64,000 bases of DNA. Origin: Struthio camelus (taxonomy: Eukaryota > Chordata > Aves > Struthioniformes > Struthionidae). This document shows positions 21,285 through 51,740 of the stretch, piece after piece. Location of the stretch: the NCBI RefSeq assembly GCF_040807025.1, contig NC_090982.1, forward strand, positions 89,653,463 to 89,717,462. The letters are read 5' to 3'. The position numbers and the translations under genes are program-made. The first letter of the stretch is position 1, and every line of letters begins with the position of its first letter. The notes under the pieces were generated by a model. It saw only the letters and a program-made list of their open reading frames with translations. It was not told where the DNA came from and made no database searches.

Positions 21285-21329
21285 GTATGCTGCAAGGAGG
21301 TTTAAAGCCGCTGGACCGAACAGACTGAA

Positions 21330-24300: not shown

Positions 24301-24309
24301 GTGCTGTCA

Positions 24310-25290: not shown

Positions 25291-25334
25291 AAGTGGAGTG
25301 TGTTGAAGGCTGTTCCGGGTTGTCTGGATCCATC

Positions 25335-26095: not shown

Positions 26096-26106
26096 CAATC
26101 ATAATT

Positions 26107-27199: not shown

Positions 27200-27370
27200 C
27201 GGGTGTCACAGGGTAAGGGGAAGCATGCTGGCACTGAGCTCCATGGCAAACTCCCTCCCAGGTGTTGCTTCTGCGCAGTAAAACAATAAACAGTTGCTTT
27301 ATTCTTTGCACTCGTGTCTGTGGTTCCTGCCGTCGCTTTGCCTGAAGATGATGCCCAGGGGAGGAGGTTA
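27200..27370 (+). mobile_element. LTR R/U5-like fossil
   Basis: AATAAACAGTTGCTTTATTC followed by TTTGCACTCGTGTCTGTGG resembles the poly-A signal and U5 of a retroviral LTR on the plus strand. Its twin is at about 58,962-59,132. Family and limits are unknown. Confidence 0.25.
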
Positions 27371-30299: not shown

Positions 30300-33054
30300 G
30301 GGGTTTAGTACCTGTTTTAGCAGACAATCGCGTGTCCCTTTAGGCCCCAGGAAGCAGAAAGTTCTGACCTGACAGCAAAGTATTTGGTCTTTTTAACGCT
30401 CTTGCGGCTGAAGGTGACTCCTAATGAAAAGCAATGAGAATTCTGAGGATTCACTGGAAACGTAAGAGACAGTATCTGCCCTTTTTAAAAGGCTGTGTGC
30501 TTCCGCTAATAATACCTGTAGTAATCAAGCCACTAGATTTTTCTGACAATAAGAGCCTTTAAGCTGCGATCGCTACTCGAAAAGTCCAGATATTTTAGAA
30601 ACTGAACGAGCCTTCTGAGCTTGCTGACTGCAGTACCTCGAAAGATGATCAGAGTGCTGATGTTTTCATGCTTTAGTGTGGTAGAGATGCTCTGTGCAAA
30701 CATCCCTTGTGTTTAATCTTCAAAACTGCGCAGACTGTCACGGAGCTCTCTTTTGACTATCTACTTTGCGTAACAAACAGAAAGGCAGGAGGTTGACAGT
30801 GCTAAATGAGTAAGGTCATTGCTTGTTTAGGGGTTGCAAATTTTATGGAATTTTGTCCTTTTAAATCTCATCTAGAATATGCTTGCAAAAAATCCCTGGG
30901 AAGAAAACAAGGAGTATAAGCAGCTTTTGAATATTATTAGCAATACTTACACGTTCTGGATGGGTTCTTAGGGTCCCCCATGGTCTTCTGCCCTCCCCAT
31001 TACCCCCAAATTTACCCATTTTGCAGTGTTTTGGCACTTATTTTGCTCTTTCTTGTCCCGAAGCAGGTCAGGGTTTGGTGTGGACAGAGGGGGGAAGGAG
31101 CCAGCTGTGGGTAAATGGGCCCTGGATGGCATCGCGGGGACACGGCGAATCCTGGCACAGCCCATCTTCAGCACGGGGAGAGGCCGGAGTGCTGCCGTGA
31201 TGAGTGCTGAGAAAGGTACCTCTCTTTGGATTATGTGCACCCCAGAGCCCACCTTCTGGCCTTTCATTCTCCCCCGATCCCTCCTGTCAAGTATTTGTGC
31301 TCTGCGGATGCCTGAGTTTGGCTTTTTGTGACTTGTAGGTTCCTCCGCTGAGGTTCTTTTTGCCCCTGAGGTCCTCCCTTTCACCATCTTGTCCCCACAG
31401 AACCCTGAATTGTTTCTTCTCCCTCGCCCAGCCCACAACATCCCTTCCTTTTCCTTTTCTTTTTTGCTGCCCCTCGATCCTTCCTTTTGCAATTTTGCAC
31501 CACCAGTTCACTCTGTTAAGCTCTTCTCTCTTTTGGGCTTTTTGCACCCCCCACCCCCCACCCCCTTTGTAAAGCTTTTTTTGTGCCGCTTACAAGCTTC
31601 TGGCTTTTTTTCCCCTGAGAAGCCTTCCTTCTGGCTTTGTGTGTCAGCACCCTCCCCTTTTTGAATAAAGCAGAGATTAAAGGCAAACTCGGTATCTCTT
31701 TATGCAGCTGCAACCCTTTGGAGGGGAAGCAAATACGTTATTGTGGTTTGTAGTATTTCTGGGCTAACTCTGGGGAAATCCTCATCACAGTTTGGATTTT
31801 TTGTTGTTGTTTCTATAAGTTCGTTGCTTTGAAAGTTTGAAACTAGTATTCGTTTGGCTTACTGCCTTACTGTCATAACTGAGCGTAAAGCAGAGATTGT
31901 GTTGCCATTGCATATGACCTCCCTCATATGGTGCTTGCGTTCATATACGTGTGTTCTCCCCAGGAGTACTCTTGCCTTTTCCTTTCCTTTAGTAAACAAA
32001 CGCCTTTCTGAGCCAATACCGAGCAACACGGTGGATGTGCTTCTAGCGCTAACGTCGCGTCGCAGGAGGCAGCTGAGAGCAGTCGATAAGCCGGTGCTCT
32101 AGACATGCAAAGGCAGGAAGAAGCGGACTAGCTATTGAGCTTCCCTCGAGAGCAGAGGAAGAGGAGAAGAAACCCAGGGGGCGGTCATACGCCCGCTGAC
32201 GATTCCGGAGGCTTTGCCTTGCAATGCGTTTCTCCTGGTAGGCGGCAGCACTCATTGCCCGTGGCGGGTAAGGGCCGGAACCACCTTGCGCTGAGGGCTC
32301 AGCAGAACCAGAGAGGCGAGGGTGTCCCTGGGGTGGCTGCGGGTGCCTGGATTTCTCCGGCCCACCTCAAGGCATGCGTTGCGGGGAGAAAAGGGTGCGG
32401 GCTTTCAGGGGCCTGGCAGTGCTCTGCTCCGTGCGGGCACAGGGCAGGGTCTGCCCTGAACACATGTTTGCCTCTCCCTGTCTTTGTTTTAATTCCTGCC
32501 TTTAGGGCTGAGGTTCCTCCCCAGAGCAGACTTGTACGTGTGCCCTCGCTCGTGTAGATGCAGATGGCCTGGAGGTGTGGGGAGGCAGGCTGTCCCGCGA
32601 GAAGGACTTTTGCGCGGCGTCCCGGGGAGGATAGCTGCGATGTACCTCGTGCACCCAAGGGTGTTGGTAAGCGACAAGATAACAAGTGGCTGTTTCCTGG
32701 TCACTCCCCTCACTAGAGAAAAATCGATTTACAGATTGGCTTTCACATGGAGAGAGAAACAGTACACCTTTCCTCAGGTCTGGTTGGGGTTTCACAGTGT
32801 GCCTGCACTAACACGTGGTCGTTGTCAGAGACGGTTTAGACGGGTTGCCTGCAGAGAGGTAGGAAAGGCATTACCTTTCGTGGACAGTGCTGTGGTGGGC
32901 AGAGCTACGGACGAAGAGGTGTGAGAGCGAGGTGCCTGAGCCTTAAAACTGACTGGAAGGGACAGGATTCAAGGCCGGTTGGTGCACAGCACACAGCGCA
33001 ACGCCAGGCTCATTACAAAGGTACTGTAATTGGGGAAACGGCCCGCTGACAGAA
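30300..33054. other. Non-coding part of left block and arm to the satellite
   Basis: AT-balanced to 32,100, then increasingly GC-rich. AATAAAGCAGAGATTAAAGG at about 31,665 is a possible poly-A signal or LTR end. At 32,510-32,600 a fragment resembles the 3' end of repeat R1 (TGTGCCCTCGCTCGTGTAG). No gene is recognised. The part after 32,241 has no partner inside the window. Confidence 0.5.
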
Positions 33055-33180
33055 GAAGAAAGGTTAAAGCTCTGTGTGAAATAAAGGGTCCTTCCCATCA
33101 GTGCTGAGGAAGAGGGTCGCGTTTCTTAGAGCAGCATATCCGTCGTTTTTCTGGTAGCAGCAGAGCACCGCAGTGGGAGG
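33055..33180 (+). repeat. Fragment related to the block's AAAGGTTAAAGC segment
   Basis: GAAAGGTTAAAGCTCTGTG and GGTCCTTCCCATCAGTGC resemble 24,145-24,200 and 54,335-54,390. A piece of block sequence therefore lies right against the GC-rich satellite flank. Confidence 0.45.
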
Positions 33181-33239
33181 TTCTGGAAGAGTCAGGAGCA
33201 GAACTGGCAGGAGGCTCTTTTCCCTGTCCGGATGGAAAA

Positions 33240-33559
33240 ACGGCTGTAAGCACGCTTGCCAGAAACCGAGGAGGCCGAGGACGAGGCCCGGCTGGGGCCC
33301 TTGCCTTGGGCCCTGACTGCGGGCACCCGGCGCGCCCTGCCACCCGAGGCCTGCTCGCCCCAGGCGCGACTGCCACCGCCACCACCCCTCGGCGCTGCTG
33401 CGCCCCGGTGCTGCACCGCCGCCGAGACACGGGGTGCTCGTGAGGTCCCCGCCACCGTCTCCTCCTGCAGGACACAGGTGCCCGGGGGGAGGGTACGAAA
33501 GGGTCGGGGCGGCCCGACCGGAGGGTGCGGGGAGCGGCGGCGGCCGCTGCCGGCCTAGG
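33240..33559. promoter_or_regulatory. GC-rich flank of the satellite
   Basis: A CpG-dense, GC-rich stretch leads directly into the first degraded satellite units. It continues the satellite as one CpG-rich domain of more than 18 kb. No exon signals convinced me on either strand. Confidence 0.35.
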
Positions 33560-33944
33560 CCAGCGGGGTCGCGCATGCGCACTGGATCAGACCGGCTCGC
33601 GGCTGCGGCAAGCGGAGTGGCGCATGCGCATTGGGGGGCGACCCGCTTACTCCCTGCTGCCCTCAAGTGACTACGAACCGGTACTGCAGGCAGGGGATTA
33701 ACGCATGCGCACTGCTCCAGATGTGCTCCATGCTGCCCTCGGGTGATGCCACCCCAATAGTGCAGCCAGCCGACGAACGCATGCGTCCTGGACGCATCGG
33801 TTCCTTGGTGCCCCTCGAGCGATGAAAGCCTGCCAGCCAACCAGCCGCCTCGCGCATGCGCGCCGCCCCGACACTGCTCCCTGCGGCCCTCAGCTACGAA
33901 CAGCGTAGTACTGCAGGCAGCCGCAGCGCGCAGGCGCACTTGCT
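33560..33944 (+). repeat. Degenerate left edge of the NRF1 satellite
   Basis: NRF1-type cores occur at 33,571, 33,620, 33,702, 33,777, 33,852 and 33,927, mostly spaced 75-81 bp like the array unit, while the sequence between them is strongly diverged. The last edge unit has GCGCAGGCGCACTTGCTCGG, a CACTTGCTCG form otherwise seen only at the right edge. Decayed edge units are expected when unequal exchange homogenises only the interior. Confidence 0.8.
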
Positions 33945-36900
33945 CGGCGTGGCTCGCTGGTGCCCTCGGCTGGCCAGAAATCGGTACTGCAGCCCGAAAA
34001 ATCAGTACTGCAGCCGAAGCGGGGCGCAGGCGCAGTGGTTTCGGCGTGGCTCGTTGGTGCCCTCGGCTGGCCAAAAATCGGTACTGCAGCCCGAAATATC
34101 GGTCCTGCAGGCGAAGCGGGGCGCATGCGCAGTGGTTTCGGCGTGGCTCGTGGGGGCCCTCGGCTGGCCAGAAATCGGTACTGCAGGCGAAGCGGGGCGC
34201 AGGCGCAGTGGTTTCGGCGTGGCTCGTTGGTGCCCTCGGCTGGCCAGAAATCGGTACTGCAGGCGAAGCGGGGCGCATGCGCAGTGGTTTCGGCGTGGCT
34301 CGTTGGTGCCCTCGGCTGGCCAGAAATCGGTACTGCAGGCGAAGCGGGGCGCAGGCGCAGTGGTTTCGGCGTGGCTCGTTGGTGCCCTCGGCTGGCCAGA
34401 AATCGGTACTGCAGGCGAAGCGGGGCGCAGGCGCAGTGGTTTCGGCGTGGCTCGTTGGTGCCCTCGGCTGGCCAGAAATCGGTACTGCAGCGCGAAAAAT
34501 CGGTACTGCAGGCGAAGCGGGGCGCATGCGCACTGGGTTTCGGTGTGGCTCGTTGGTGCCCTCGGCTGGCGAAAAATCGGTACTGCAGGCGAAGCGGGGC
34601 GCAGGCGCAGTGGTTTCGGCGTGGCTCGTTGGTGCCCTCGGCTGACCAGAAATCGGTACTGCAGGCGAAGCGGGGTGCATGCGCAGTGGTTTCGGCGTGG
34701 CTCGTTGGTGCCCTCGGCTGGCCAGAAATCGGTACTGCAGGCGAAGCGGGGCGCATGCGCAGTGGTTTCGGCGTGGCTCGTTGGTGCCCTCGGCTGGCCA
34801 GAAATCGGTACTGCAGGCGAAGCGGGGCGCATGCGCAGTGGTTTCGGCGTGGCTCGTTGGTGCCCTCGGCTGGCCAGAAATCGGTACTGCAGGCGAAGCG
34901 GGGCGCATGCGCAGTGGTTTCGGCGTGGCTCGTTGGTGCCCTCGGCTGGCGAAAAATCGGTACTGCAGGCGAAGCGGGGCGCATGCGCACTGGGTTTCGG
35001 CGTGGCTCGTTGGTGCCCTCGGCTGGCCAGAAATCGGTACTGCAGGCGAAGCGGGGCGCAGGCGCACTGGGTTTCGGCGTGGCTCGTTGGTGCCCTCGGC
35101 TGGCCAGAAATCGGTACTGCAGGCGAAGCGGGGCGCAGGCGCACTGGGTTTCGGCGTGGCTCGTTGGTGCCCTCGGCTGGCGAAAAATCGGTACTGCAGG
35201 CGAAGCGGGGCGCATGCGCACTGGGTTTCGGCGTGGCTCGTTGGTGCCCTCGGCTGGCCAGAAATCGGTACTGCAGGCGAAGCGGGGCGCAGGCGCAGTG
35301 GTTTCGGCGTGGCTCGTGGGTGCCCTCGGCTGGCGAAAAATCGGTACTGCAGGCGAAGCGGGACGCATGCGCACTGGGTTTCGGCGTGGCTCGTTGGTGC
35401 CCTCGGCTGGCCAGAAATCGGTACTGCAGGCGAAGCGGGGCGCATGCGCAGTGGTTTCGGCGTGGCTCGTTGGTGCCCTCGGCTGGCCAAAAATCGGTAC
35501 TGCAGCCCGAAAAATCAGTACTGCAGGCGAAGCGGGGCGCAGGCGCACTGGGTTTCGGCGTGGCTCGTTGGTGCCCTCGGCTGGCCAGAAATCGGTACTG
35601 CAGGCGAAGCGGGGCGCATGCGCAGTGGTTTCGGCGTGGCTCGTTGGTGCCCTCGGCTGGCCAGAAATCGGTACTGCAGGCGAAGCGGGGCGCAGGCGCA
35701 GTGGTTTCGGCGTGGCTCGTTGGTGCCCTCGGCTGGCCAGAAATCGGTACTGCAGGCGAAGCGGGGCGCATGCGCAGTGGTTTCGGCGTGGCTCGTTGGT
35801 GCCCTCGGCTGGCCAGAAATCGGTACTGCAGGCGAAGCGGGGCGCATGCGCAGTGGTTTCGGCGTGGCTCGTTGGTGCCCTCGGCTGACCAGAAATCGGT
35901 ACTGCAGCCCGAAAAATCGGTACTGCAGGCGAAGCGGGGCGCAGGCGCAGTGGTTTCGGCGTGGCTCGTTGGTGCCCTCGGCTGGCCAGAAATCGGTACT
36001 GCAGGCGAAGCGGGGCGCATGCGCAGTGGTTTCGGCGTGGCTCGTTGGTGCCCTCGGCTGGCCAGAAATCGGTACTGCAGGCGAAGCGGGGCGCATGCGC
36101 ACTGGGTTTCGGCGTGGCTCGTGGGTGCCCTCGGCTGGCCAGAAATCGGTACTGCAGGCGAAGCGGGGCGCATGCGCAGTGGTTTCGGCGTGGCTCGTTG
36201 GTGCCCTCGGCTGGCCAGAAATCGGTACTGCAGCCCGAAAAATCGGTCCTGCGGGCGAAGCGGGGCGCATGCGCAGTGGTTTCGGCGTGGCTCGTTGGTG
36301 CCCTCGGCTGACCAGAAATCGGTACTGCAGCCCGAAAAATCGGTACTGCAGGCGAAGCGGGGCGCAGGCGCAGTGGTTTCGGCGTGGCTCGTTGGTGCCC
36401 TCGGCTGGCCAGAAATCGGTACTGCAGCCCGAAAAATCGGTACTGCAGGCGAAGCGGGGCGCATGCGCAGTGGTTTCGGCGTGGCTCGTTGGTGCCCTCG
36501 GCTGGCCAGAAATCGGTACTGCAGGCGAAGCGGGGCGCAGGCGCAGTGGTTTCGGCGTGGCTCGTTGGTGCCCTCGGCTGGCCAGAAATCGGTACTGCAG
36601 GCGAAGCGGGGCGCATGCGCAGTGGTTTCGGCGTGGCTCGTTGGTGCCCTCGGCTGGCCAGAAATCGGTACTGCAGGCGAAGCGGGGCGCATGCGCACTG
36701 GGTTTCGGCGTGGCTCGTGGGTGCCCTCGGCTGGCCAGAAATCGGTACTGCAGGCGAAGCGGGGCGCAGGCGCAGTGGTTTCGGCGTGGCTCGTTGGTGC
36801 CCTCGGCTGGCCAGAAATCGGTACTGCAGGCGAAGCGGGGCGCATGCGCACTGGGTTTCGGCGTGGCTCGTTGGTGCCCTCGGCTGGCCAGAAATCGGTA

Positions 36901-39900
36901 CTGCAGCGCGAAAAATCGGTACTGCAGGCGAAGCGGGGCGCATGCGCAGTGGTTTCGGCGTGGCTCGTGGGTGCCCTCGGCTGGCCAGAAATCGGTACTG
37001 CAGCGCGAAAAATCGGTACTGCAGGCGAAGCGGGGCGCATGCGCACTGGGTTTCGGCGTGGCTCGTGGGTGCCCTCGGCTGGCCAGAAATCGGTACTACA
37101 GCCCGAAAAATCGGTACTGCAGGCGAAGCGGGGCGCAGGCGCAGTGGTTTCGGCGTGGCTCGTTGGTGCCCTCGGCTGGCCAGAAATCGGTACTGCAGGC
37201 GAAGCGGGGCGCATGCGCACTGGGTTTCGGTGTGGCTCGTTGGTGCCCTCGGCTGGCGAAAAATCGGTACTGCAGGCGAAGCGGGGCGCATGCGCAGTGG
37301 TTTCGGCGTGGCTCGTTGGTGCCCTCGGCTGGCCAAAAATCGGTACTGCAGGCGAAGCGGGGCGCATGCGCAGTGGTTTCGGCGTGGCTCGTTGGTGCCC
37401 TCGGCTGGCCAGAAATCGGTACTGCAGGCGAAGCGGGGCGCATGCGCAGTGGTTTCGGCGTGGCTCGTTGGTGCCCTCGGCTGGCCAGAAATCGGTACTG
37501 CAGGCGAAGCGGGGCGCATGCGCAGTGGTTTCGGCGTGGCTCGTTGGTGCCCTCGGCTGGCCAGAAATCGGTACTGCAGGCGAAGCGGGGCGCAGGCGCA
37601 GTGGTTTCGGCGTGGCTCGTTGGTGCCCTCGGCTGGCGAAAAATCGGTACTGCAGGCGAAGCGGGGCGCATGCGCACTGGGTTTCGGCGTGGCTCGTTGG
37701 TGCCCTCGGCTGGCCAGAAATCGGTACTGCAGGCGAAGCGGGGCGCATGCGCACTGGGTTTCGGCGTGGCTCGTTGGTGCCCTCGGCTGGCGAGAAATCG
37801 GTACTGCAGGCGAAGCGGGGCGCATGCGCACTGGGTTTCGGCGTGGCTCGTTGGTGCCCTCGGCTGGCCAGAAATCGGTACTGCAGGCGAAGCGGGGCGC
37901 AGGCGCAGTGGTTTCGGCGTGGCTCGTGGGTGCCCTCGGCTGGCGAAAAATCGGTACTGCAGGCGAAGCGGGGCGCATGCGCACTGGGTTTCGGCGTGGC
38001 TCGTTGGTGCCCTCGGCTGGCCAGAAATCGGTACTGCAGGCGAAGCGGGGCGCATGCGGAGTGGTTTCGGCGTGGGTCGTTGGTGCCCTCGGCTGGCCAG
38101 AAATCGGTACTGCAGCCCGAAAAATCAGTACTGCAGGCGAAGCGGGGCGCAGGCGCACTGGGTTTCGGCGTGGCTCGTTGGTGCCCTCGGCTGGCCAGAA
38201 ATCGGTACTGCAGGCGAAGCGGGGCGCATGCGGAGTGGTTTCGGCGTGGCTCGTTGGTGCCCTCGGCTGGCCAGAAATCGGTACTGCAGGCGAAGCGGGG
38301 CGCATGCGCAGTGGTTTCGGCGTGGCTCGTTGGTGCCCTCGGCTGGCCAGAAATCGGTACTGCAGGCGAAGCGGGGCGCATGCGCAGTGGTTTCGGCGTG
38401 GCTCGTGGGTGCCCTCGGCTGGCCAGAAATCGGTACTGCATTCGAAGCGGGGCGCATGCGCAGTGGTTTCGGCGTGGCTTGTTGGTGCCCTCGGCTGGCC
38501 AGAAATCGGTACTGCAGGCGAAGCGGGGCGCAGGCGCAGTGGTTTCGGCGTGGCTCGTTGGTGCCCTCGGCTGGCCAGAAATCGGTACTGCAGGCGAAGC
38601 GGGGCGCAGGCGCAGTGGTTTCGGCGTGGCTCGTTGGTGCCCTCGGCTGGCCAGAAATCGGTACTGCAGGCGAAGCGGGGCGCATGCGCACTGGGTTTCG
38701 GCGTGGCTCGTGGGTGCCCTCGGCTGGCCAGAAATCGGTACTGCAGGCGAAGCGGGGCGCATGCGCAGTGGTTTCGGCGTGGCTCGTTGGTGCCCTCGGC
38801 TGGCCAGAAATCGGTACTGCAGGCGAAGCGGGGCGCATGCGCAGTGGTTTCGGCGTGGCTCGTTGGTGCCCTCGGCTGGCCAGAAATCGGTACTGCAGGC
38901 GAAGCGGGGCGCATGCGCACTGAGTTTCGGCGTGGCTCGTGGGTGCCCTCGGCTGGCCAGAAATCGGTCCTGCAGGCGAAGCGGGGCGCATGCGCACTGG
39001 GTTTCGGCGTGGATCGTGGGTGCCCTCGGCTGGCCAGAAATCGGTACTGCAGCCCGAAAAAACGGTCCTGCAGGCGAAGCGGGGCGCAGGCGCAGTGGTT
39101 TCGGCGTGGCTCGTTGGTGCCCTCGGCTGGCCAGAAATCGGTACTGCAGGCGAAGCGGGGCGCATGCGCAGTGGTTTCGGCGTGGCTCGTTGGTGCCCTC
39201 GGCTGGCCAGAAATCGGTACTGCAGCCCGAAAAATCGGTACTGCAGGCGAAGCGGGGCGCATGCGCAGTGGTTTCGGCGTGGCTCGTTGGTGCCCTCGGC
39301 TGGCCAGAAATCGGTACTGCAGGCGAAGCGGGGCGCATGCGCACTGGGTTTCGGCGTGGCTCGTTGGTGCCCTCGGCTGGCCAGAAATCGGTACTGCAGG
39401 CGAAGCGGGGCGCAGGCGCAGTGGTTTCGGCGTGGCTCGTGGGTGCCCTCGGCTGGCCAGAAATCGGTACTGCAGGCGAAGCGGGGCGCATGCGCAGTGG
39501 TTTCGGCGTGGGTCGTTGGTGCCCTCGGCTGGCCAGAAATCGGTACTGCAGCCCGAAAAATCGGTACTGCGGGCGAAGCGGGGCGCATGCGCAGTGGTTT
39601 CGGCGTGGCTCGTTGGTGCCCTCGGCTGACCAGAAATCGGTACTGCAGCCCGAAAAATCGGTACTGCAGGCGAAGCGGGGCGCAGGCGCAGTGGTTTCGG
39701 CGTGGCTCGTTGGTGCCCTCGGCTGGCCAGAAATCGGTACTGCAAGCGAAGCGGGGCGCATGCGCACTGGGTTTCGGCGTGGCTCGTGGGTGCCCTCGGC
39801 TGGCGAGAAATCGGTACTGCAGGCGAAGCGGGGCGCATGCGCACTGGGTTTCGGCGTGGCTCGTGGGTGCCCTCGGCTGGCGAGAAATCGGTACTGCAGG

Positions 39901-42900
39901 CGAAGCGGGGCGCATGCGCACTGGGTTTCGGCGTGGCTCGTTGGTGCCCTCGGCTGGCGAGAAATCGGTACTGCAGGCGAAGCGGGGCGCATGCGCAGTG
40001 GTTTCGGCGTGGCTCGTTGGTGCCCTCGGCTGGCCAGAAATCGGTACTGCAGGCGAAGCGGGGCGCATGCGCACTGGGTTTCGGCGTGGCTCGTTGGTGC
40101 CCTCGGCTGGCCAGAAATCGGTACTGCAGGCGAAGCGGGGCGCAGGCGCAGTGGTTTCGGCGTGGCTCGTGGGTGCCCTCGGCTGGCCAGAAATCGGTAC
40201 TGCAGGCGAAGCGGGGCGCAGGCGCAGTGGTTTCGGCGTGGCTCGTTGGTGCCCTCGGCTGGCCAGAAATCGGTACTGCAGGCGAAGCGGGGCGCAGGCG
40301 CAGTGGTTTCGGCGTGGCTCGTGGGTGCCCTCGGCTGGCCAGAAATCGGTACTGCAGGCGAAGCGGGGCGCAGGCGCAGTGGTTTCGGCGTGGCTCGTTG
40401 GTGCCCTCGGCTGGCCAGAAATCGGTACTGCAGGCGAAGCGGGGCGCATGCGCAGTGGTTTCAGCGTGGCTCGTTGGTGCCCTCGGCTGGCCAGAAATCG
40501 GTACTGCAGGCGAAGCGGGGCGCAGGCGCAGTGGTTTCGGCGTGGCTCGTTGGTGCCCTCGGCTGGCCAGAAATCGGTACTGCAGGCGAAGCGGGGCGCA
40601 TGCGCACTGGGTTTCGGCGTGGCTCGTGGGTGCCCTCGGCTGGCCAGAAATCGGTACTGCAGGCGAAGCGGGGCGCAGGCGCAGTGGTTTCGGCGTGACC
40701 CGTGGGTGCCCTCGGCTGGCCAGAAATCGGTACTGCAGGCGAAGCGGGGCGCAGGCGCAGTGGTTTCGGCGTGGCTCGTTGGTGCCCTCGGCTGGCCAGA
40801 AATCGGTACTGCAGGCGAAGCGGGGCGCATGCGCAGTGGTTTCGGCGTGGCTCGTTGGTGCCCTCGGCTGGCCAGAAATCGGTACTGCAGGCGAAGCGGG
40901 GCGCATGCGCACTGGGTTTCGGCGTGGCTCGTTGGTGCCCTCGGCTGGCCAGAAATCGGTACTGCAGGCGAAGCGGGGCGCAGGCGCAGTGGTTTCGGCG
41001 TGGCTCGTTGGTGCCCTCGGCTGGCCAGAAATCGGTACTGCAGGCGAAGCGGGGCGCAGGCGCAGTGGTTTCGGCGTGACTCGTGGGTGCCCTCGGCTGG
41101 CCAGAAATCGGTACTGCAGGCGAAGCGGGGCGCATGCGCAGTGGTTTCGGCGTGGCTCGTGGGTGCCCTCGGCTGGCCAGAAATCGGTACTGCAGGCGAA
41201 GCGGGGCGCAGGCGCAGTGGTTTCGGCGTGGCTCGTTGGTGCCCTCGGCTGGCCAGAAATCGGTACTGCAGGCGAAGCGGGGCGCATGCGCAGTGGTTTC
41301 GGCGTGGCTCGTTGGTGCCCTCGGCTGGCCAGAAATCGGTACTGCAGGCGAAGCGGGGCGCAGGCGCAGTGGTTTCGGCGTGGCTCGTTGGTGCCCTCGG
41401 CTGGCCAGAAATCGGTACTGCAGGCGAAGCGGGGCGCATGCGCACTGGGTTTCGGCGTGGCTCGTGGGTGCCCTCGGCTGGCCAGAAATCGGTACTGCAG
41501 GCGAAGCGGGGCGCATGCGCAGTGGTTTCGGCGTGGCTCGTTGGTGCCCTCGGCTGGCCAGAAATCGGTCCTGCAGGCGAAGCGGGGCGCATGCGCAGTG
41601 GTTTCGGCGTGGCTCGTGGGGGCCCTCGGCTGGCCAGAAATCGGTACTGCAGGCGAAGCGGGGCGCATGCGCAGTGGTTTCGGCGTGGCTCGTTGGTGCC
41701 CTCGGCTGGCCAGAAATCGGTACTGCAGGCGAAGCGGGGCGCATGCGCAGTGGTTTCGGCGTGGCTCGTTGGTGCCCTCGGCTGGCCAGAAATCGGTACT
41801 GCAGGCGAAGCGGGGCGCAGGCGCAGTGGTTTCGGCGTGGCTCGTTGGTGCCCTCGGCTGGCCAGAAATCGGTACTGCAGGCGAAGCGGGGCGCATGCGC
41901 AGTGGTTTCGGCGTGGCTCGTTGGTGCCCTCGGCTGGCGAAAAATCGGTACTGCAGGCGAAGCGGGGCGCAGGCGCAGTGGTTTCGGCGTGGCTCGTGGG
42001 GGCCCTCGGCTGGCCAGAAATCGGTACTGCAGGCGAAGCGGGGCGCATGCGCAGTGGTTTCGGCGTGGCTCGTTGGTGCCCTCGGCTGGCCAGAAATCGG
42101 TACTGCAGCACGAAAAATCGGTACTGCAGGCGAAGCGGGGCGCATGCGCACTGGGTTTCGGCGTGGGTCGTTGGTGCCCTCGGCTGGCCAGAAATCGGTA
42201 CTGCAGCCCGAAAAATCGGTACTGCAGGCGAAGCGGGGCGCATGCGCAGTGGTTTCGGCGTGGCTCGTTGGTGCCCTCGGCTGGCGAAAAATCGGTACTG
42301 CAGGCGAAGCGGGGCGCATGCGCAGTGGTTTCGGCGTGGCTCGTTGGTGCCCTCGGCTGGCCAAAAATCGGTACTGCAGGCGAAGCGGGGTGCATGCGCA
42401 GTGGTTTCGGCGTGGCTCGTTGGTGCCCTCGGCTGGCCAGAAATCGGTACTGCAGGCGAAGCGGGGCGCAGGCGCAGTGGTTTCGGCGTGGCTCGTTGGT
42501 GCCCTCGGCTGGCCAGAAATCGGTACTGCAGGCGAAGCGGGGCGCAGGCGCAGTGGTTTCGGCGTGGCTCGTTGGTGCCCTCGGCTGGCCAGAAATCGGT
42601 ACTGCAGGCGAAGCGGGGCGCATGCGCAGTAGTTTCGGCGTGGCTCGTTGGTGCCCTCGGCTGGCCAGAAATCGGTACTGCAGCGCGAAAAATCGGTACT
42701 GCAGGCGAAGCGGGGCGCATGCGCACTGGGTTTCGGCGTGGCTCGTTGGTGCCCTCGGCTGGCCAGAAATCGGTACTGCAGCCCGAAAAATCGGTACTGC
42801 AGGCGAAGCGGGGCGCATGCGCACTGGGTTTCGGCGTGGCTCGTTGGTGCCCTCGGCTGGCCAGAAATCGGTACTGCAGGCGAAGCGGGGCGCATGCGCA

Positions 42901-45900
42901 GTGGTTTCGGCGTGGCTCGTTGGTGCCCTCGGCTGGCCAGAAATCGGTACTGCAGGCGAAGCGGGGCGCAGGCGCAGTGGTTTCGGCGTGGCTCGTTGGT
43001 GCCCTCGGCTGGCCAGAAATCGGTACTGCAGGCGAAGCGGGGCGCAGGCGCACTGGGTTTCGGCGTGGCTCGTTGGTGCCCTCGGCTGGCCAGAAATCGG
43101 TACTGCAGGCGAAGCGGGGCGCATGCGCACTGGGTTTCGGCGTGGCTCGTGGGTGCCCTCGGCTGGCCAGAAATCGGTACTGCAGCCCGAAAAAACGGTC
43201 CTGCAGGCGAAGCGGGGCGCATGCGCACTGGGTTTCGGCGTGGGTCGTTGGTGCCCTCGGCTGGCCAGAAATCGGTACTGCAGGCGAAGCGGGGCGCATG
43301 CGCAGTGGTTTCGGCGTGGCTCGTTGGTGCCCTCGGCTGGCCAGAAATCGGTACTGCAGGCGAAGCGGGGCGCAGGCGCAGTGGTTTCGGCGTGGCTCGT
43401 TGGTGCCCTCGGCTGGCCAGAAATCGGTACTGCAGCGCGAAAAATCGGTACTGCAGGCGAAGCGGGGCGCATGCGCACTGGGTTTCGGTGTGGGTCGTTG
43501 GTGCCCTCGGCTGGCGAAAAATCGGTACTGCAGGCGAAGCGGGGCGCATGCGCAGTGGTTTCGGCGTGGCTCGTTGGTGCCCTCGGCTGGCCAAAAATCG
43601 GTACTGCAGGCGAAGCGGGGTGCATGCGCAGTGGTTTCGGCGTGGCTCGTTGGTGCCCTCGGCTGGCCAGAAATCGGTACTGCAGGCGAAGCGGGGCGCA
43701 GGCGCAGTGGTTTCGGCGTGGCTCGTTGGTGCCCTCGGCTGGCCAGAAATCGGTACTGCAGGCGAAGCGGGGCGCATGCGCAGTGGTTTCGGCGTGGCTC
43801 GTTGGTGCCCTCGGCTGGCCAGAAATCGGTACTGCAGGCGAAGCGGGGCGCAGGCGCAGTGGTTTCGGCGTGGCTCGTTGGTGCCCTCGGCTGGCCAGAA
43901 ATCGGTACTGCAGGCGAAGCGGGGCGCATGCGCAGTAGTTTCGGCGTGGCTCGTGGGTGCCCTCGGCTGGCCAGAAATCGGTACTGCAGCGCGAAAAATC
44001 GGTACTGCAGGCGAAGCGGGGCGCATGCGCACTGGGTTTCGGCGTGGCTCGTGGGTGCCCTCGGCTGGCCAGAAATCGGTACTGCAGCCCGAAAAATCGG
44101 TACTGCAGGGGAAGCGGGGCGCATGCGCACTGGGTTTCGGCGTGGCTCGTGGGTGCCCTCGGCTGGCCAGAAATCGGTACTGCAGGCGAAGCGGGGCGCA
44201 TGCGCAGTGGTTTCGGCGTGGCTCGTTGGTGCCCTCGGCTGGCCAGAAATTGGTACTGCAGGCGAAGCGGGGCGCAGGCGCAGTGGTTTCGGCGTGGCTC
44301 GTTGGTGCCCTCGGCTGGCCAGAAATCGGTACTGCAGGCGAAGCGGGGCGCATGCGCACTGGGTTTCGGCGTGACTCGTGGGTGCCCTCGGCTGGCCAGA
44401 AATCGGTACTGCAGGCGAAGCGGGGCGCATGCGCACTGGGTTTCGGCGTGGCTCGTTGGTGCCCTCGGCTGGCCAGAAATCGGTACTGCAGGCGAAGCGG
44501 GGCGCAGGCGCAGTGGTTTCGGCGTGGCTCGTTGGTGCCCTCGGCTGGCCAGAAATCGGTACTGCAGGCGAAGCGGGGCGCAGGCGCAGTGGTTTCGGCG
44601 TGACTCGTGGGTGCCCTCGGCTGGCCAGAAATCGGTACTGCAGGCGAAGCGGGGCGCATGCGCAGTGGTTTCGGCGTGGCTCGTGGGTGCCCTCGGCTGG
44701 CCAGAAATCGGTACTGCAGGCGAAGCGGGGCGCAGGCGCACTGGGTTTCGGCGTGGCTCGTGGGTGCCCTCGGCTGGCCAGAAATCGGTACTGCAGCGCG
44801 AAAAATCGGTACTGCAGGCGAAGCGGGGCGCATGCGCACTGGGTTTCGGCGTGGCTCGTGGGTGCCCTCGGCTGGCCAGAAATCGGTACTGCAGGCGAAG
44901 CGGGGCGCAGGCGCACTGGGTTTCGGCGTGGCTCGTGGGTGCCCTCGGCTGGCCAGAAATCGGTACTGCAGCCCGAAAAAACGGTCCTGCAGGCGAAGCG
45001 GGGCGCATGCGCACTGGGTTTCGGCGTGGGTCGTTGGTGCCCTCGGCTGGCCAGAAATCGGTACTGCAGGCGAAGCGGGGCGCATGCGCAGTGGTTTCGG
45101 CGTGGCTCGTTGGTGCCCTCGGCTGGCCAGAAATCGGTACTGCAGGCGAAGCGGGGCGCAGGCGCAGTGGTTTCGGCGTGGCTCGTTGGTGCCCTCGGCT
45201 GGCCAGAAATCGGTACTGCAGGCGAAGCGGGGCGCATGCGCACTGGGTTTCGGCGTGGCTCGTTGGTGCCCTCGGCTGGCCAGAAATCGGTACTGCAGGC
45301 GAAGCGGGGCGCAGGCGCAGTAGTTTCGGCGTGGCTCGTGGGTGCCCTCGGCTGGCCAGAAATCGGTACTGCAGCGCGAAAAATCGGTACTGCAGGCGAA
45401 GCGGGGCGCATGCGCACTGGGTTTCGGCGTGGCTCGTTGGTGCCCTCGGCTGGCCAGAAATCGGTACTGCAGGCGAAGCGGGGCGCAGGCGCAGTGGTTT
45501 CGGCGTGGCTCGTTGGTGTCCTCGGCTGGCCAGAAATCGGTACTGCAGGCGAAGCGGGGCGCAGGCGCACTGGGTTTCGGCGTGGCTCGTTGGTGCCCTC
45601 GGCTGGCCAGAAATCGGTACTGCAGGCGAAGCGGGGCGCATGCGCACTGGGTTTCGGCGTGGCTCGTGGGTGCCCTCGGCTGGCCAGAAATCGGTACTGC
45701 AGCCCGAAAAAACGGTCCTGCAGGCGAAGCGGGGCGCATGCGCACTGGGTTTCGGCGTGGGTCGTTGGTGCCCTCGGCTGGCCAGAAATCGGTACTGCAG
45801 GCGAAGCGGGGCGCAGGCGCAGTGGTTTCGGCGTGGCTCGTTGGTGCCCTCGGCTGGCCAGAAATCGGTACTGCAGGCGAAGCGGGGCGCATGCGCACTG

Positions 45901-46182
45901 GGTTTCGGCGTGGCTCGTTGGTGCCCTCGGCTGGCCAGAAATCGGTACTGCAGCGCGAAAAATCGGTACTGCAGGCGAAGCGGGGCGCAGGCGCAGTGGT
46001 TTCGGCGTGGCTCGTGGGTGCCCTCGGCTGGCCAGAAATCGGTACTGCAGGCGAAGCGGGGCGCATGCGCAGTGGTTTCGGCGTGGCTCGTTGGTGCCCT
46101 CGGCTGGCCAGAAATCGGTCCTGCAGCGCGAAAAATCGGTACTGCAGGCGAAGCGGGGCGCATGCGCACTGGGTTTCGGCGT

Positions 46183-48259
46183 GACTCGTGGGTGCCCTCG
46201 GCTGGCCAGAAATCGGTACTACAGCCCGAAAAATCGGTACTGCAGGCGAAGCGGGGCGCATGCGCACTGGGTTTCGGCGTGGCTCGTTGGTGCCCTCGGC
46301 TGGCCAGAAATCGGTACTGCAGCGCGAAAAATCCGTACTGCAGGCGAAGCGGGGCGCATGCGCACTGGGTTTCGGTGTGGCTCGTTGGTGCCCTCGGCTG
46401 GCGAAAAATCGGTACTGCAGGCGAAGCGGGGCGCATGCGCAGTGGTTTCGGCGTGGCTCGTTGGTGCCCTCGGCTGGCCAAAAATCGGTACTGCAGGCGA
46501 AGCGGGGTGCATGCGCAGTGGTTTCGGCGTGGCTCGTTGGTGCCCTCGGCTGGCCAGAAATCGGTACTGCAGGCGAAGCGGGGCGCAGGCGCAGTGGTTT
46601 CGGCGTGGCTCGTTGGTGCCCTCGGCTGGCCAGAAATCGGTACTGCAGGCGAAGCGGGGCGCATGCGCAGTGGTTTCGGCGTGGCTCGTTGGTGCCCTCG
46701 GCTGGCCAGAAATCGGTACTGCAGGCGAAGCGGGGCGCAGGCGCAGTGGTTTCGGCGTGGCTCGTTGGTGCCCTCGGCTGGCCAGAAATCGGTACTGCAG
46801 GCGAAGCGGGGCGCATGCGCAGTAGTTTCGGCGTGGCTCGTGGGTGCCCTCGGCTGGCCAGAAATCGGTACTGCAGCGCGAAAAATCGGTACTGCAGGCG
46901 AAGCGGGGCGCATGCGCACTGGGTTTCGGCGTGGGTCGTTGGTGCCCTCGGCTGGCCAGAAATCGGTACTGCAGCCCGAAAAATCGGTACTGCAGGCGAA
47001 GCGGGGCGCATGCGCACTGGGTTTCGGCGTGGCTCGTGGGTGCCCTCGGCTGGCCAGAAATCGGTACTGCAGGCGAAGTGGGGCGCATGCGCAGTGGTTT
47101 CGGCGTGGCTCGTTGGTGCCCTCGGCTGGCCAGAAATCGGTACTGCAGGCGAAGCGGGGCGCAGGCGCGGTGGTTTCGGCGTGGCTCGTTGGTGCCCTCG
47201 GCTGGCCAGAAATCGGTACTGCAGGCGAAGCGGGGCGCAGGCGCACTGGGTTTCGGCGTGGCTCGTTGGTGCCCTCGGCTGGCCAGAAATCGGTACTGCA
47301 GGCGAAGCGGGGCGCATGCGCACTGGGTTTCGGCGTGGCTCGTGGGTGCCCTCGGCTGGCCAGAAATCGGTCCTGCAGCCCGAAAAAACGGTCCTGCAGG
47401 CGAAGCGGGGCGCATGCGCACTGGGTTTCGGCGTGGGTCGTTGGTGCCCTCGGCTGGCCAGAAATCGGTACTGCAGGCGAAGCGGGGCGCATGCGCAGTG
47501 GTTTCGGCGTGGCTCGTTGGTGCCCTCGGCTGGCCAGAAATCGGTACTGCAGGCGAAGCGGGGCGCAGGCGCAGTGGTTTCGGCGTGGCTCGTTGGTGCC
47601 CTCGGCTGGCCAGAAATCGGTACTGCAGGCGAAGCGGGGCGCATGCGCACTGGGTTTCGGCGTGGCTCGTTGGTGCCCTCGGCTGGCCAGAAATCGGTAC
47701 TGCAGTGCGAAAAATCGGTACTGCAGGCGAAGCGGGGCGCAGGCGCAGTGGTTTCGGCGTGGCTCGTGGGTGCCCTCGGCTGGCCAGAAATCGGTACTGC
47801 AGGCGAAGCGGGGCGCATGCGCAGTGGTTTCGGCGTGGCTCGTTGGTGCCCTCGGCTGGCCAGAAATCGGTCCTGCAGCGCGAAAAATCGGTACTGCAGG
47901 CGAAGCGGGGCGCATGCGCACTGGGTTTCGGCGTGACTCGTGGGTGCCCTCGGCTGGCCAGAAATCGGTACTACAGCCCGAAAAATCGGTACTGCAGGCG
48001 AAGCGGGGCGCAGGCGCAGTGGTTTCGGCGTGGCTCGTTGGTGCCCTCGGCTGGCCAGAAATCGGTACTGCAGCGCGAAAAATCCGTACTGCAGGCGAAG
48101 CGGGGCACATGCGCACTGGGTTTCGGTGTGGCTCGTTGGTGCCCTCGGCTGGCGAAAAATCGGTACTGCAGGCGAAGCGGGGCGCATGCGCAGTGGTTTC
48201 GGCGTGGCTCGTTGGTGCCCTCGGCTGGCCAAAAATCGGTACTGCAGGCGAAGCGGGGT
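46183..48259 (+). repeat. Higher-order repeat inside the satellite (~1.75 kb)
   Basis: Diagnostic variants recur about 1.75 kb apart: GCGTGACTCGTGGG at about 46,182 and 47,935, GGTACTACAGCCC at about 46,213 and 47,970, and GGGGTGCATGCGCAG at 46,508 and 48,259. This shows block duplication of about 22-23 units. Related variant strings also occur near 42,390 and 43,620. Confidence 0.75.
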
Positions 48260-48839
48260 GCATGCGCAGTGGTTTCGGCGTGGCTCGTTGGTGCCCTCGG
48301 CTGGCCAGAAATCGGTACTGCAGGCGAAGCGGGGCGCAGGCGCAGTGGTTTCGGCGTGGCTCGTTGGTGCCCTCGGCTGGCCAGAAATCGGTACTGCAGG
48401 CGAAGCGGGGCGCATGCGCAGTGGTTTCGGCGTGGCTCGTTGGTGCCCTCGGCTGGCCAGAAATCGGTACTGCAGGCGAAGCGGGGCGCAGGCGCAGTGG
48501 TTTCGGCGTGGCTCGTTGGTGCCCTCGGCTGGCCAGAAATCGGTACTGCAGGCGAAGCGGGGCGCAGGCGCAGTGGTTTCGGCGTGGCTCGTTGGTGCCC
48601 TCGGCTGGCGAAAAATCGGTACTGCAGGCGAAGCGGGGCGCATGCGCACTGGGTTTCGGCGTGGCTCGTTGGTGCCCTCGGCTGGCCAGAAATCGGTACT
48701 GCAGGCGAAGCGGGGCGCATGCGCAGTGGTTTCGGCGTGGCTCGTGGGTGCCCTCGGCTGGCCAGAAATCGGTACTGCAGGCGAAGCGGGGCGCAGGCGC
48801 AGTGGTTTCGGCGTGGCTCGTTGGTGCCCTCGGCTGGCC

Positions 48840-50960
48840 AGAAATCGGTACTGCAGCGCGAAAAATCGGTCCTGCAGGCGAAGCGGGGCGCATGCGCAGT
48901 GGTTTCGGCGTGGCTCGTTGGTGCCCTCGGCTAGCCAGAAATCGGTACTGCAGGCGAAGCGGGGCGCAGGCGCAGTGGTTTCGGCGTGGCTCGTTGGTGC
49001 CCTCGGCTGGCCAGAAATCGGTACTGCAGGCGAAGCGGGGCGCATGCGCAGTGGTTTCGGCGTGGCTCGTTGGTGCCCTCGGCTGGCCAGAAATCGGTAC
49101 TGCAGGCGAAGCGGGGCGCAGGCGCAGTGGTTTCGGCGTGGCTCGTTGGTGCCCTCGGCTGGCCAGAAATCGGTCCTGCAGGCGAAGCGGGGCGCATGCG
49201 CAGTGGTTTCGGCGTGGCTCGTGGGGGCCCTCGGCTGGCCAGAAATCGGTACTGCAGGCGAAGCGGGGCGCAGGCGCAGTGGTTTCGGCGTGGCTCGTTG
49301 GTGCCCTCGGCTGGCCAGAAATCGGTACTGCAGGCGAAGCGGGGCGCAGGCGCAGTGGTTTCGGCGTGGCTCGTTGGTGCCCTCGGCTGGCCAGAAATCG
49401 GTACTGCAGGCGAAGCGGGGCGCAGGCGCAGTGGTTTCGGCGTGGCTCGTGGGTGCCCTCGGCTGGCCAGAAATCGGTACTGCAGGCGAAGCGGGGCGCA
49501 GGCGCAGTGGTTTCGGCGTGGCTCGTTGGTGCCCTCGGCTGGCGAAAAATCGGTACTGCAGGCGAAGCGGGGCGCATGCGCACTGGGTTTCGGCGTGGCT
49601 CGTTGGTGCCCTCGGCTGGCCAGAAATCGGTACTGCAGGCGAAGCGGGGCGCATGCGCAGTGGTTTCGGCGTGGCTCGTGGGTGCCCTCGGCTGGCCAGA
49701 AATCGGTACTGCAGGCGAAGCGGGGCGCAGGCGCACTGGGTTTCGGCGTGGCTCGTTGGTGCCCTCGGCTGGCCAGAAATCGGTACTGCAGCGCGAAAAA
49801 TCGGTCCTGCAGGCGAAGCGGGGCGCATGCGCAGTGGTTTCGGCGTGGCTCGTTGGTGCCCTCGGCTAGCCAGAAATCGGTACTGCAGGCGAAGCGGGGC
49901 GCAGGCGCAGTGGTTTCGGCGTGGCTCGTTGGTGCCCTCGGCTGGCCAGAAATCGGTACTGCAGGCGAAGCGGGGCGCATGCGCAGTGGTTTCGGCGTGG
50001 CTCGTTGGTGCCCTCGGCTGGCCAGAAATCGGTACTGCAGGCGAAGCGGGGCGCAGGCGCAGTGGTTTCGGCGTGGCTCGTTGGTGCCCTCGGCTGGCCA
50101 GAAATCGGTCCTGCAGGCGAAGCGGGGCGCATGCGCAGTGGTTTCGGCGTGGCTCGTTGGTGCCCTCGGCTGGCCAGAAATCGGTACTGCAGGCGAAGCG
50201 GGGCGCATGCGCAGTGGTTTCGGCGTGGCTCGTTGGTGCCCTCGGCTGGCCAAAAATCGGTACTGCAGGCGAAGCGGGGCGCAGGCGCAGTGGTTTCGGC
50301 GTGGCTCGTTGGTGCCCTCGGCTGGCCAGAAATCGGTACTGCAGGCGAAGCGGGGCGCAGGCGCAGTGGTTTCGGCGTGGCTCGTTGGTGCCCTCGGCTG
50401 GCCAGAAATCGGTACTGCAGGCGAAGCGGGGCGCAGGCGCAGTGGTTTCGGCGTGGCTCGTGGGTGCCCTCGGCTGGCCAGAAATCGGTACTGCAGGCGA
50501 AGCGGGGCGCAGGCGCAGTGGTTTCGGCGTGGCTCGTTGGTGCCCTCGGCTGGCGAAAAATCGGTACTGCAGGCGAAGCGGGGCGCATGCGCACTGGGTT
50601 TCGGCGTGGCTCGTTGGTGCCCTCGGCTGGCCAGAAATCGGTACTGCAGGCGAAGCGGGGCGCATGCGCAGTGGTTTCGGCGTGGCTCGTGGGTGCCCTC
50701 GGCTGGCCAGAAATCGGTACTGCAGGCGAAGCGGGGCGCAGGCGCACTGGGTTTCGGCGTGGCTCGTTGGTGCCCTCGGCTGGCCAGAAATCGGTACTGC
50801 AGCGCGAAAAATCGGTCTTGCAGGCGAAGCGGGGCGCATGCGCAGTGGTTTCGGCGTGGCTCGTTGGTGCCCTCGGCTAGCCAGAAATCGGTACTGCAGG
50901 CGAAGCGGGGCGCAGGCGCAGTGGTTTCGGCGTGGCTCGTTGGTGCCCTCGGCTGGCCAG
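48840..50960 (+). repeat. Higher-order repeat at the right end (~0.94-1.01 kb)
   Basis: The rare word CGGCTAGCC occurs at about 48,931, 49,866 and 50,877, each time just after a unit with the GCGCGAAAAATCGGTC extension. Spacings are 935 and 1,011 bp and differ by one 76-bp unit. Three successive 12- or 13-unit blocks have therefore duplicated in tandem. Confidence 0.8.
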
Positions 50961-51470
50961 AAATCGGTACTGCAGGCGAAGCGGGGCGCATGCGCAGTGG
51001 TTTCGGCGTGGCTCGTTGGTGCCCTCGGCTGGCCAGAAATCGGTACTGCAGGCGAAGCGGGGCGCAGGCGCAGTGGTTTCGGCGTGGCTCGTTGGTGCCC
51101 TCGGCTGGCCAGAAATCGGTACTGCAGGCGAAGCGGGGCGCATGCGCAGTGGTTTCGGCGTGGCTCGTGGGGGCCCTCGGCTGGCCAGAAATCGGTACTG
51201 CAGGCGAAGCGGGGCGCAGGCGCAGTGGTTTCGGCGTGGCTCGTTGGTGCCCTCGGCTGGCCAGAAATCGGTACTGCAGGCGAAGCGGGGCGCAGGCGCA
51301 GTGGTTTCGGCGTGGCTCGTTGGTGCCCTCGGCTGGCCAGAAATCGGTACTGCAGGCGAAGCGGGGCGCAGGCGCAGTGGTTTCGGCGTGGCTCGTTGGT
51401 GCCCTCGGCTGGCCAGAAATCGGTACTGCAGGCGAAGCGGGGCGCAGGCGCAGTGGTTTCGGCGTGGCGA

Positions 51471-51600
51471 AGCGGGGCGCAGGTGCACTTGCTCGTCGGC
51501 GCTCGTTCGTGCCCTCGGCTGGCGAAAAGTGGGTACTGCAGGCGAAGCGGGGCGCATGCGCGGTGCTCGAGAGCCGGGCCCCCCGCGCTCCCGCGCCCCG
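51471..51600 (+). repeat. Degenerate right edge of the NRF1 satellite
   Basis: Two diverged units. The first has GCAGGTGCACTTGCTCGTCG, sharing CACTTGCTCG with the left edge; the second has GCGAAAAGTGGGTACTGCAG and GCGCATGCGCGGTGCTCGAG. After this the periodic sequence stops and promoter-like sequence begins. Confidence 0.85.
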
Positions 51601-51654
51601 TTCGCGATCGGCGCATGCGCGGAGGGCGGCGCATGCGCGGCGGCGGGCAGCAGC
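51601..51654 (+). promoter_or_regulatory. Promoter-like segment with two NRF1 motifs
   Basis: GGCGCATGCGCGG at about 51,611 and 51,630 are NRF1 palindromes 19 bp apart, 25-45 bp upstream of an ATG in strong Kozak context (AGCATGG). There is no TATA box, which fits an NRF1-driven CpG-island promoter. The satellite units resemble this segment in their NRF1 core, suggesting that the array grew from such a promoter. Confidence 0.45.
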
Positions 51655-51740
51655 ATGGCGGCGCGCGGGGACGGAGTTTTCGCTGGGGCGGCGGCGGGTG
51701 CGGGCCGAGGCCGCCCGGAGTCGGAGATCTGGGGGCCCCG
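51655..51740 (+). CDS. Candidate first coding exon, unknown protein
   Basis: ATG in strong Kozak context (A at -3, G at +4) opens 28 codons plus 2 nt, beginning MAARGDGVFAGAAAGAGRG and rich in Ala, Gly and Arg. It ends at CCCCG followed by GTGAGG, an acceptable donor; a second GTGAGC lies five bases on. Joined to 51,941-52,079 across a 200-bp intron, the frame stays open. I do not recognise the protein. Ala/Gly/Arg runs are also what random GC-rich DNA encodes, so the splice signals, NRF1 promoter and start context are the main support. It could equally be a non-coding first exon. Confidence 0.35.

What the first reader, a model, noticed from the sequence alone, without database searches (positions are those of the whole stretch)
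33560..51650. An ~18-kb satellite in which every unit carries an NRF1-type palindrome
About 220 units of 76/77 bp each hold GCGCATGCGCA or the related GCGCAGGCGCAG next to eight or nine CpGs. NRF1 recognises YGCGCAYGCGCR (established). Well over a hundred regularly phased core-promoter sites make a structure unlike centromeric satellites. It could be a transcription-factor sink, a multi-promoter domain producing repeat RNA, an open-chromatin or replication-origin cluster, or an insulator-like body.
Basis: partly seen in the sequence, partly recalled or inferred. Interest (0 to 1): 0.92.

Follow-up and report, generated by a model that had tools for sequence, protein, structure and literature searches.

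The report
Telomere-facing NRF1-site satellite at chromosome ends
The repeat is real and not a one-off: in this bird-like genome about thirty chromosome ends carry the same block, a satellite of predicted binding sites for the energy-metabolism regulator NRF1 lying directly upstream of a promoter-like sequence that faces the telomere, a layout resembling the promoters of human telomere RNA.

Summary
The array is confirmed: 33,560-51,650 holds 130 GCGCATGCGC and 86 GCGCAGGCGC, all fitting the published NRF1 core GCGCNTGCGC, none elsewhere in the window. Context changes its meaning. The window lies 213-277 kb from the end of a probable bird Z. The array runs into a CpG-rich promoter-like block with three more NRF1 cores. 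That block was found at 40 scored places and the array's left flank at 40; all 80 point to the nearer contig end, 79 within 500 kb, on 31 ends. A unit-plus-core pattern occurs 2,835 times. Over 16 diverged arrays the NRF1 core is the most conserved 10-column window. Best reading: an amplified upstream activating region of a multicopy, telomere-facing subtelomeric transcription unit. It resembles human TERRA promoters, but lies at least 20 kb from the contig end and has a predicted poly(A) signal 7.4 kb downstream, so I do not file it as one. NRF1 binding, transcription and methylation are untested. The main rival is a passive satellite spread by subtelomeric exchange.

The parts
33001..33560 (+). 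Left flank of the array, a block repeated at chromosome ends
   Evidence: 40 matches from 40 scored of 46 candidates, all pointing to the nearer contig end
33560..33907 (+). Degenerate left-edge units that still hold CGCATGCGC cores
   Evidence: Sequence. In the cyclic alignment of 33,541-33,990 (which also takes in about 80 bp of the homogeneous part) the core columns are 0.93 and the rest 0.67 identical to the unit consensus (source winLeft)
33908..51468 (+). Homogeneous 76/77-bp satellite, about 231 unit equivalents, mostly one NRF1 core per unit; some units carry a 21-bp partial duplication (97/98 bp)
51469..51550 (+). Degenerate right-edge unit(s)
   Evidence: Sequence
51552..51654 (+). 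CpG-rich promoter-like block with NRF1 cores at 51552-51561, 51611-51620 and 51629-51638
   Evidence: 40 places genome-wide; all three cores in 24 of 30 fetched loci, two in 6 of 30
51655..51740 (+). Predicted first exon (from ATG 51655), consensus-like donor at 51741
   Evidence: prediction by eye, not scored
51941..52079 (+). Predicted exon 2, acceptor CCCTCAG, donor GTAAGT
   Evidence: prediction by eye, not scored
58645..59065 (+). Predicted last exon, 103 codons open in the phase left by exons 1+2; AATAAA at 59047; 3' end is a guess
   Evidence: prediction only
59951..60278 (-). Cluster of six ZNF143/SBS-type motifs downstream (consensus recalled)
28189..28516 (-). The same six-motif cluster in the preceding copy
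21114..27290 (+). Older copy of the downstream part; homology begins at 51,889, so no NRF1 promoter or array (last-exon acceptor 26883, AATAAA 27285)

Best explanation
The satellite is the amplified upstream part of a CpG-rich promoter-like block that belongs to a multicopy subtelomeric unit found on 31 chromosome ends (30 with a copy within 500 kb) and always facing the nearer end in the places scored. Shown: position, orientation, architecture (left flank, NRF1 array, promoter-like block, conserved splice-like signals, downstream AATAAA) and preferential retention of the NRF1 core. Inferred: when its CpGs are unmethylated, NRF1 dimers bind the array and the promoter-proximal cores and start Pol II transcription toward the telomere, giving a spliced RNA that ends about 7.4 kb downstream; unequal exchange and conversion between chromosome ends spread and homogenise the unit, and the Z/W copies have expanded most.
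For: Promoter-like block: 40 places, 40 of 40 pointing to the nearer contig end, 39 of 40 within 500 kb; left flank: 40 of 40 and 40 of 40; 31 ends together. Telomeric repeats cap 15 of these ends in the assembly, C40R in degenerate form. All 30 fetched promoter loci have at least one NRF1 core in the 1.5 kb upstream, 29 of 30 at least five, and two or three cores in the block. Over 16 diverged arrays aligned without anchoring on the motif, the core is the first of 76 10-column windows (0.924 against a mean of 0.695). Between the two 76-bp unit families, which differ at 23 of 78 columns, the core is the only unchanged 10-column window (P 0.023; the second family's consensus had been cut around the core, so this comparison is anchored). 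CpG o/e is 1.10 and CpG-base transitions in the array (16 of 3,936) do not exceed other G/C transitions (38 of 7,214). NRF1 binds GCGCNTGCGC; the TFAM reporter motif GCGCCTGCGC is the complement of this array's second form (PMC10810270, passages).
Against: No transcript, ChIP or methylation data. Orientation would be kept by subtelomeric exchange without any function. Two other unit blocks are about as conserved over 8 columns (GTACTGCA 0.939, TGCCCTCG 0.929, core 0.938). One of 30 loci has a single upstream core. CpG persistence can also reflect recent amplification, and substitution counts are small. The 16 arrays are related, not independent. The 56.2-59.2 kb stretch is 97-100% identical to C25R across introns too, so last-exon conservation is largely homogenisation, not proof of a functional RNA.
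Confidence: 0.55

Rival explanations
1. Passive subtelomeric satellite: an NRF1-regulated promoter fragment was captured in a subtelomeric duplicon, its upstream repeat expanded by unequal exchange, and both were spread between ends; copy number has no function.
For: Array length varies from 1.0 to 18.0 kb between copies; exact internal repeats of 419-564 bp at offsets of 935, 1,011, 1,751 and 2,887 bp show block-wise unequal exchange; several Z and W copies and one C7 copy are 100% identical over the promoter-like block, and the downstream block is 97-100% alike at 40 places; an older copy in the window lacks promoter and array.
Against: Core ranks first in the unanchored conservation profile; all three promoter-proximal cores are kept in 24 of 30 fetched loci and two in the other 6.
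Confidence: 0.27
2. Avian counterpart of the human TERRA promoter: NRF1 (possibly CTCF) on a subtelomeric tandem-repeat CpG island drives RNA that reads into TTAGGG.
For: CpG-rich tandem repeats with NRF1 cores on many ends, facing the telomere. In human, 37 of 46 ends have 61-29-37 repeats (PMC12242772, section and passages), each 29-bp repeat has two putative NRF1 sites and NRF1 is a positive regulator (PMC6600276, sections). Z-type units carry a site one mismatch from the recalled CTCF consensus; 7 of 5,000 shuffled units do; CTCF sites start TERRA on some human ends (PMC5727389, abstract).
Against: The most distal promoter-like block per end is 20.8 to 440 kb from the contig end, and 3.46 Mb on C6R; on C27R, telomere-like repeats begin 30-32 kb beyond it. 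AATAAA lies 7.4 kb downstream in the window. The CTCF-like match falls to 2-3 mismatches in the other unit family.
Confidence: 0.1
3. Promoter of a multicopy protein-coding subtelomeric gene.
For: Exons 1+2 have 225 nt without indel in 16 of 16 copies examined, and the last exon is open for 103 codons in exactly the phase they leave; 10 of 2,000 mononucleotide shuffles are open in that phase.
Against: Variable columns by codon position 10/6/12, one copy with a stop and one without the ATG; no third-position bias in the last exon; no Pfam match for the exon-1 piece or the last-exon frame; none of 70 candidates scored E up to 0.01 for residues 70-178 of the predicted protein.
Confidence: 0.06
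4. NRF1 sink, insulator or replication-origin cluster with no promoter role.
For: 2,835 unit-linked cores genome-wide could hold a sizeable NRF1 pool; CTCF-like site in Z-type units.
Against: Nothing specific; the fixed placement directly upstream of a promoter-like block is left unexplained.
Confidence: 0.02

Closest known systems
Human Type I TERRA promoters (61-29-37 bp repeats)
   Same: Subtelomeric, tandemly repeated CpG islands with NRF1 sites, on many chromosome ends, facing the telomere (PMC6600276, PMC12242772)
   Different: One 76/77-bp unit instead of 61/29/37; arrays of about 1-18 kb; intact NRF1 palindromes; 20 kb or more from the contig end; predicted splicing and poly(A) signal
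Ordinary NRF1-type CpG-island promoters
   Same: CpG-rich, GCGCATGCGC cores just upstream of a predicted first exon with a consensus-like donor
   Different: Upstream region is a satellite of up to about 231 units, and the promoter-like block is multicopy and subtelomeric
Chicken/quail subtelomeric PO41 repeat and Z macrosatellite
   Same: Bird subtelomeric tandem repeats; PO41 is transcribed from both strands (PMC4301066, abstract and passages)
   Different: PO41 has a 41-bp unit; no NRF1 promoter block in the passages seen; sequences not compared

Membership tests
Human-type TERRA promoter | Subtelomeric, on many chromosome ends | tested here: met
   31 ends; 79 of 80 places within 500 kb of the contig end
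Human-type TERRA promoter | Faces the telomere | tested here: met
   80 of 80 places point to the nearer contig end; 15 of the 31 ends show telomeric repeats in the assembly, C40R degenerate
Human-type TERRA promoter | Tandem-repeat CpG island with NRF1 sites | tested here: met
Human-type TERRA promoter | 61/29/37-bp repeat units | tested here: not met
   Units of 76/77 and 97/98 bp; human sequence itself not compared
Human-type TERRA promoter | Start site close to the telomeric tract | tested here: not met
   20.8 kb or more to the contig end; 30-32 kb on C27R
Human-type TERRA promoter | CTCF site at the repeat | tested here: inconclusive
   1 mismatch in the Z-type unit, 2-3 in the other family; consensus recalled
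Human-type TERRA promoter | RNA containing UUAGGG | not testable with these tools
   No RNA data
NRF1-type CpG-island promoter | CpG-rich block with intact GCGCNTGCGC cores | tested here: met
NRF1-type CpG-island promoter | NRF1 occupancy and transcription | not testable with these tools
   No ChIP, CAGE or RNA data
Centromeric satellite | Centromeric position | tested here: inconclusive
   Window is 213-277 kb from the end of an 89.9-Mb contig and the unit recurs at chromosome ends on both arms of C1, C2, C3 and C4, which speaks against it; centromeres were not mapped
PO41 bird subtelomeric repeat | 41-bp period | tested here: not met
   Period 76

The most novel reading that the evidence does not exclude
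A bird has its own chromosome-end promoter system: about thirty or more chromosome ends carry a telomere-facing promoter fed by a rapidly length-changing satellite of NRF1 sites, so that subtelomeric transcription is set by NRF1, by CpG methylation and by local array length. This would be a convergent counterpart of human NRF1-driven TERRA promoters with the regulator sites amplified tens- to hundred-fold.
Probability: 0.3. Interest if true: 0.88.

Novelty: new variant of a known kind. Interest (0 to 1): 0.72.

Why it matters
NRF1 links energy metabolism to human telomere RNA; whether such a link exists outside mammals is open as far as the papers seen here go. A bird in which about thirty chromosome ends carry telomere-facing NRF1-site CpG arrays of variable length would allow direct tests of whether array length or methylation sets subtelomeric transcription. 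It would also be a case of a satellite whose unit is built around a transcription-factor site that is retained while much of the unit drifts.

Tried and rejected
Known RNA family, ribosomal spacer included: 0 Rfam matches at gathering thresholds. The unit in virus or prokaryote collections: 0 exact matches for a 21-mer. Coding satellite: the 6,068-aa minus-strand open frame through the array is put down to a G+C-rich unit whose length is not a multiple of 3; this was not tested by shuffling. TERRA proper: weakened by distance and the predicted poly(A) signal. Protein-coding gene: see rivals. Last-exon conservation as proof of selection: withdrawn. CTCF: kept as tentative only. Papers: searches returned no paper; the titles and starts of abstracts listed show no bird NRF1 satellite. 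Nothing wider is claimed.

Rows dropped before a count: of 42 rows, two short fragments adjoining larger hits were left out, giving 40 places (17 of 57 candidates were never scored). One search used 20 rows from 30 loci (one per end plus two extra copies). One search dropped four of those 20 (three near-identical Z/W/C7 copies, and C19L, which loses homology). In one search the C7L row is partial.

Full report
OBSERVATION. It holds 130 GCGCATGCGC and 86 GCGCAGGCGC, with none elsewhere in the window. All 216 fit GCGCNTGCGC on one strand, which PMC10810270 gives as the NRF1 consensus; its TFAM reporter motif GCGCCTGCGC is the complement of the second form (passages). Of 217 intervals between sites, 120 are 76 bp, 43 are 77 and 39 are 97 or 98; the longer units carry a 21-bp partial duplication. 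The homogeneous part is 33,908-51,468, about 231 unit equivalents.

WHERE IT IS. The window is C41:89,653,463-89,717,462 of a 1.45-Gb assembly; C41 is 89,930,962 bases long. Of 14 scored candidates, both DMRT1-family matches lie on C41, so C41 is taken as a bird Z (Z-linkage of DMRT1 is recalled). A 1-kb probe from C41 at 80 Mb has one other match, near-identical, on C40 at 60.5 Mb, so C40 is probably a W that still recombines there; this is inference. The last bases of C41 are a CTTTACTCTTTCCCTCT satellite whose complement lies just inside the telomere on C14.

WHAT SURROUNDS IT. The right edge runs into a CpG-rich block with three more NRF1 cores (51,552, 51,611, 51,629), an ATG at 51,655, a donor at 51,741, an acceptor before 51,941 and a donor at 52,080; the splice signals were judged by eye. 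Searching the genome with 51,540-51,780 gave 42 rows from 40 scored of 57 candidates. Without two fragments there are 40 places, all pointing to the nearer contig end, 39 within 500 kb; the exception is C6, 3.46 Mb in. The left flank 33,001-33,560 gave 40 rows from 40 scored of 46 candidates, all pointing to the nearer end and all within 500 kb. Together they mark 31 ends, 30 with a copy within 500 kb. Fifteen (C3L, C7L, C14L, C10L, C12L, C13L, C20L, C1R, C3R, C4R, C5R, C9R, C16R, C27R and, in degenerate form, C40R) show telomeric repeats at the contig end. Of the others, C1L, C2L, C4L, C19L, C21L and C22L begin with N; C6R, C11R, C18R, C24R, C25R, C2R, C15L and C41R end in other sequence; C8R and C26R were not looked at. 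Both searches are lower bounds. The pattern TACTGCAG-N9..12-GCGCAKGCGC occurs 2,556 + 279 times, and 0 times read backwards; only the first places are listed, all on C1 and C2, and these are subtelomeric and face the nearer end.

ARRAYS ELSEWHERE. All 30 fetched promoter loci have NRF1 cores upstream, mostly at 76-bp steps; 29 of 30 have at least five in 1.5 kb, one (C3L 450 kb) has one. On Z there are nine blocks in tandem with arrays of 18.0, 1.0, 11.8, 3.2, 11.9, 16.2, 15.7, 15.8 and 6.5 kb; the window has the longest. Autosomal arrays measured in the same way, from left flank to next promoter-like block, are 1.1-9.0 kb, plus one C14 value of 14.8 kb; C40 gives 6.3-15.1 kb. The 14.8 and 15.1 kb values belong to flanks that have another flank before the block and are uncertain.

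CONSERVATION. Two unit families exist, a Z/W type and a type on many large chromosomes, both 76 bp, differing at 23 of 78 aligned columns; the NRF1 core has 0 of 10 differences (P 0.023) and is the only unchanged 10-column window. The second family's consensus came from units cut around the core, so that comparison is anchored. The unanchored cyclic alignment of 16 diverged arrays ranks the core first of 76 windows (0.924 against a mean of 0.695), but two other blocks, GTACTGCA and TGCCCTCG, are about as conserved over 8 columns, and the arrays are related to one another. In the window's array, CpG-base transitions are 16 of 3,936 and other G/C transitions 38 of 7,214: no CpG decay, though counts are small and the array may be young. 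Exact internal repeats of 419-564 bp at offsets of 935-2,887 bp point to block-wise unequal exchange.

DOWNSTREAM. A block matching 58,380-59,080 occurs at 40 places (40 scored of 74 candidates) at 97-100% identity. Where an end has both, it lies about 6-8 kb on the telomere side of the promoter-like block (my subtraction); one copy on C5 lies 2.9 Mb in. It contains an acceptor before 58,645, a 103-codon frame open in the phase left by exons 1+2 (10 of 2,000 mononucleotide shuffles are open there) and AATAAA at 59,047. Changes do not favour third positions, one of 16 copies has a stop and one lacks the ATG, and no homologue was found for residues 70-178. Against C25R, 56.2-59.2 kb is 97-100% identical across introns too, so conversion between ends is the simplest reason for that conservation. 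On C27R, telomere-like repeats begin 30-32 kb beyond the promoter-like block, from 151-base probes every 2 kb.

MECHANISM. Shown: site content, position, orientation, architecture and preferential core retention. Inferred: NRF1 binding when unmethylated, initiation at the CpG block, telomere-ward spliced RNA, length change by unequal exchange. The closest known design is the human TERRA promoter, where subtelomeric tandem-repeat CpG islands with NRF1 sites drive transcription toward telomeres and methylation hinders NRF1 (PMC6600276: abstract, introduction, section 2.5, passages; PMC12242772: one section and passages). Unit length and distance to the telomere do not fit, so it works like one in layout but is not filed as one. 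The original NRF1-TERRA paper was not held and is known here only through PMC6600276.

VERDICT. The strongest claims are positional and structural; function rests on inference. A passive satellite remains a serious rival.

Noticed in passing
28189-28516 and 59951-60278: Two clusters of six ZNF143/SBS-type motifs each (consensus recalled): 12 matches in the window against a shuffled mean of 0.04. By eye, ETS- and YY1-like sequence lies between them. A second promoter-like repeat in the same subtelomeric unit.
   Followed up: partly
26624-32241 and 58368-64000: 98.8% identical segments, part of a tandem macrosatellite whose promoter-like blocks are 15-30 kb apart at the Z end.
   Followed up: partly
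33890-52096 (-): A 6,068-aa stop-free frame through the array, probably a by-product of a G+C-rich unit of 76/77 bp that rotates through frames; not tested by shuffling.
   Followed up: no
54433-54951 (+): Relic reverse-transcriptase/RNase H domain (PF17919, E 1.7e-13) inside the predicted intron.
   Followed up: no
array units, GTACTGCA and TGCCCTCG blocks: Two unit blocks about as conserved as the NRF1 core with no identified factor; the second overlaps the near-CTCF match.
   Followed up: partly
G000:C6:46843442 and G000:C5:2906640: Copies about 3 Mb from the contig end, each still facing the nearer end; possible old rearrangement.
   Followed up: no
L087, C25 8270000-8276370: The C25 end is about 90% G+C and not telomeric; by eye similar sequence starts C16.
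   Followed up: no
8873-10417: Long TGTGG and GT-rich simple repeats.
   Followed up: no
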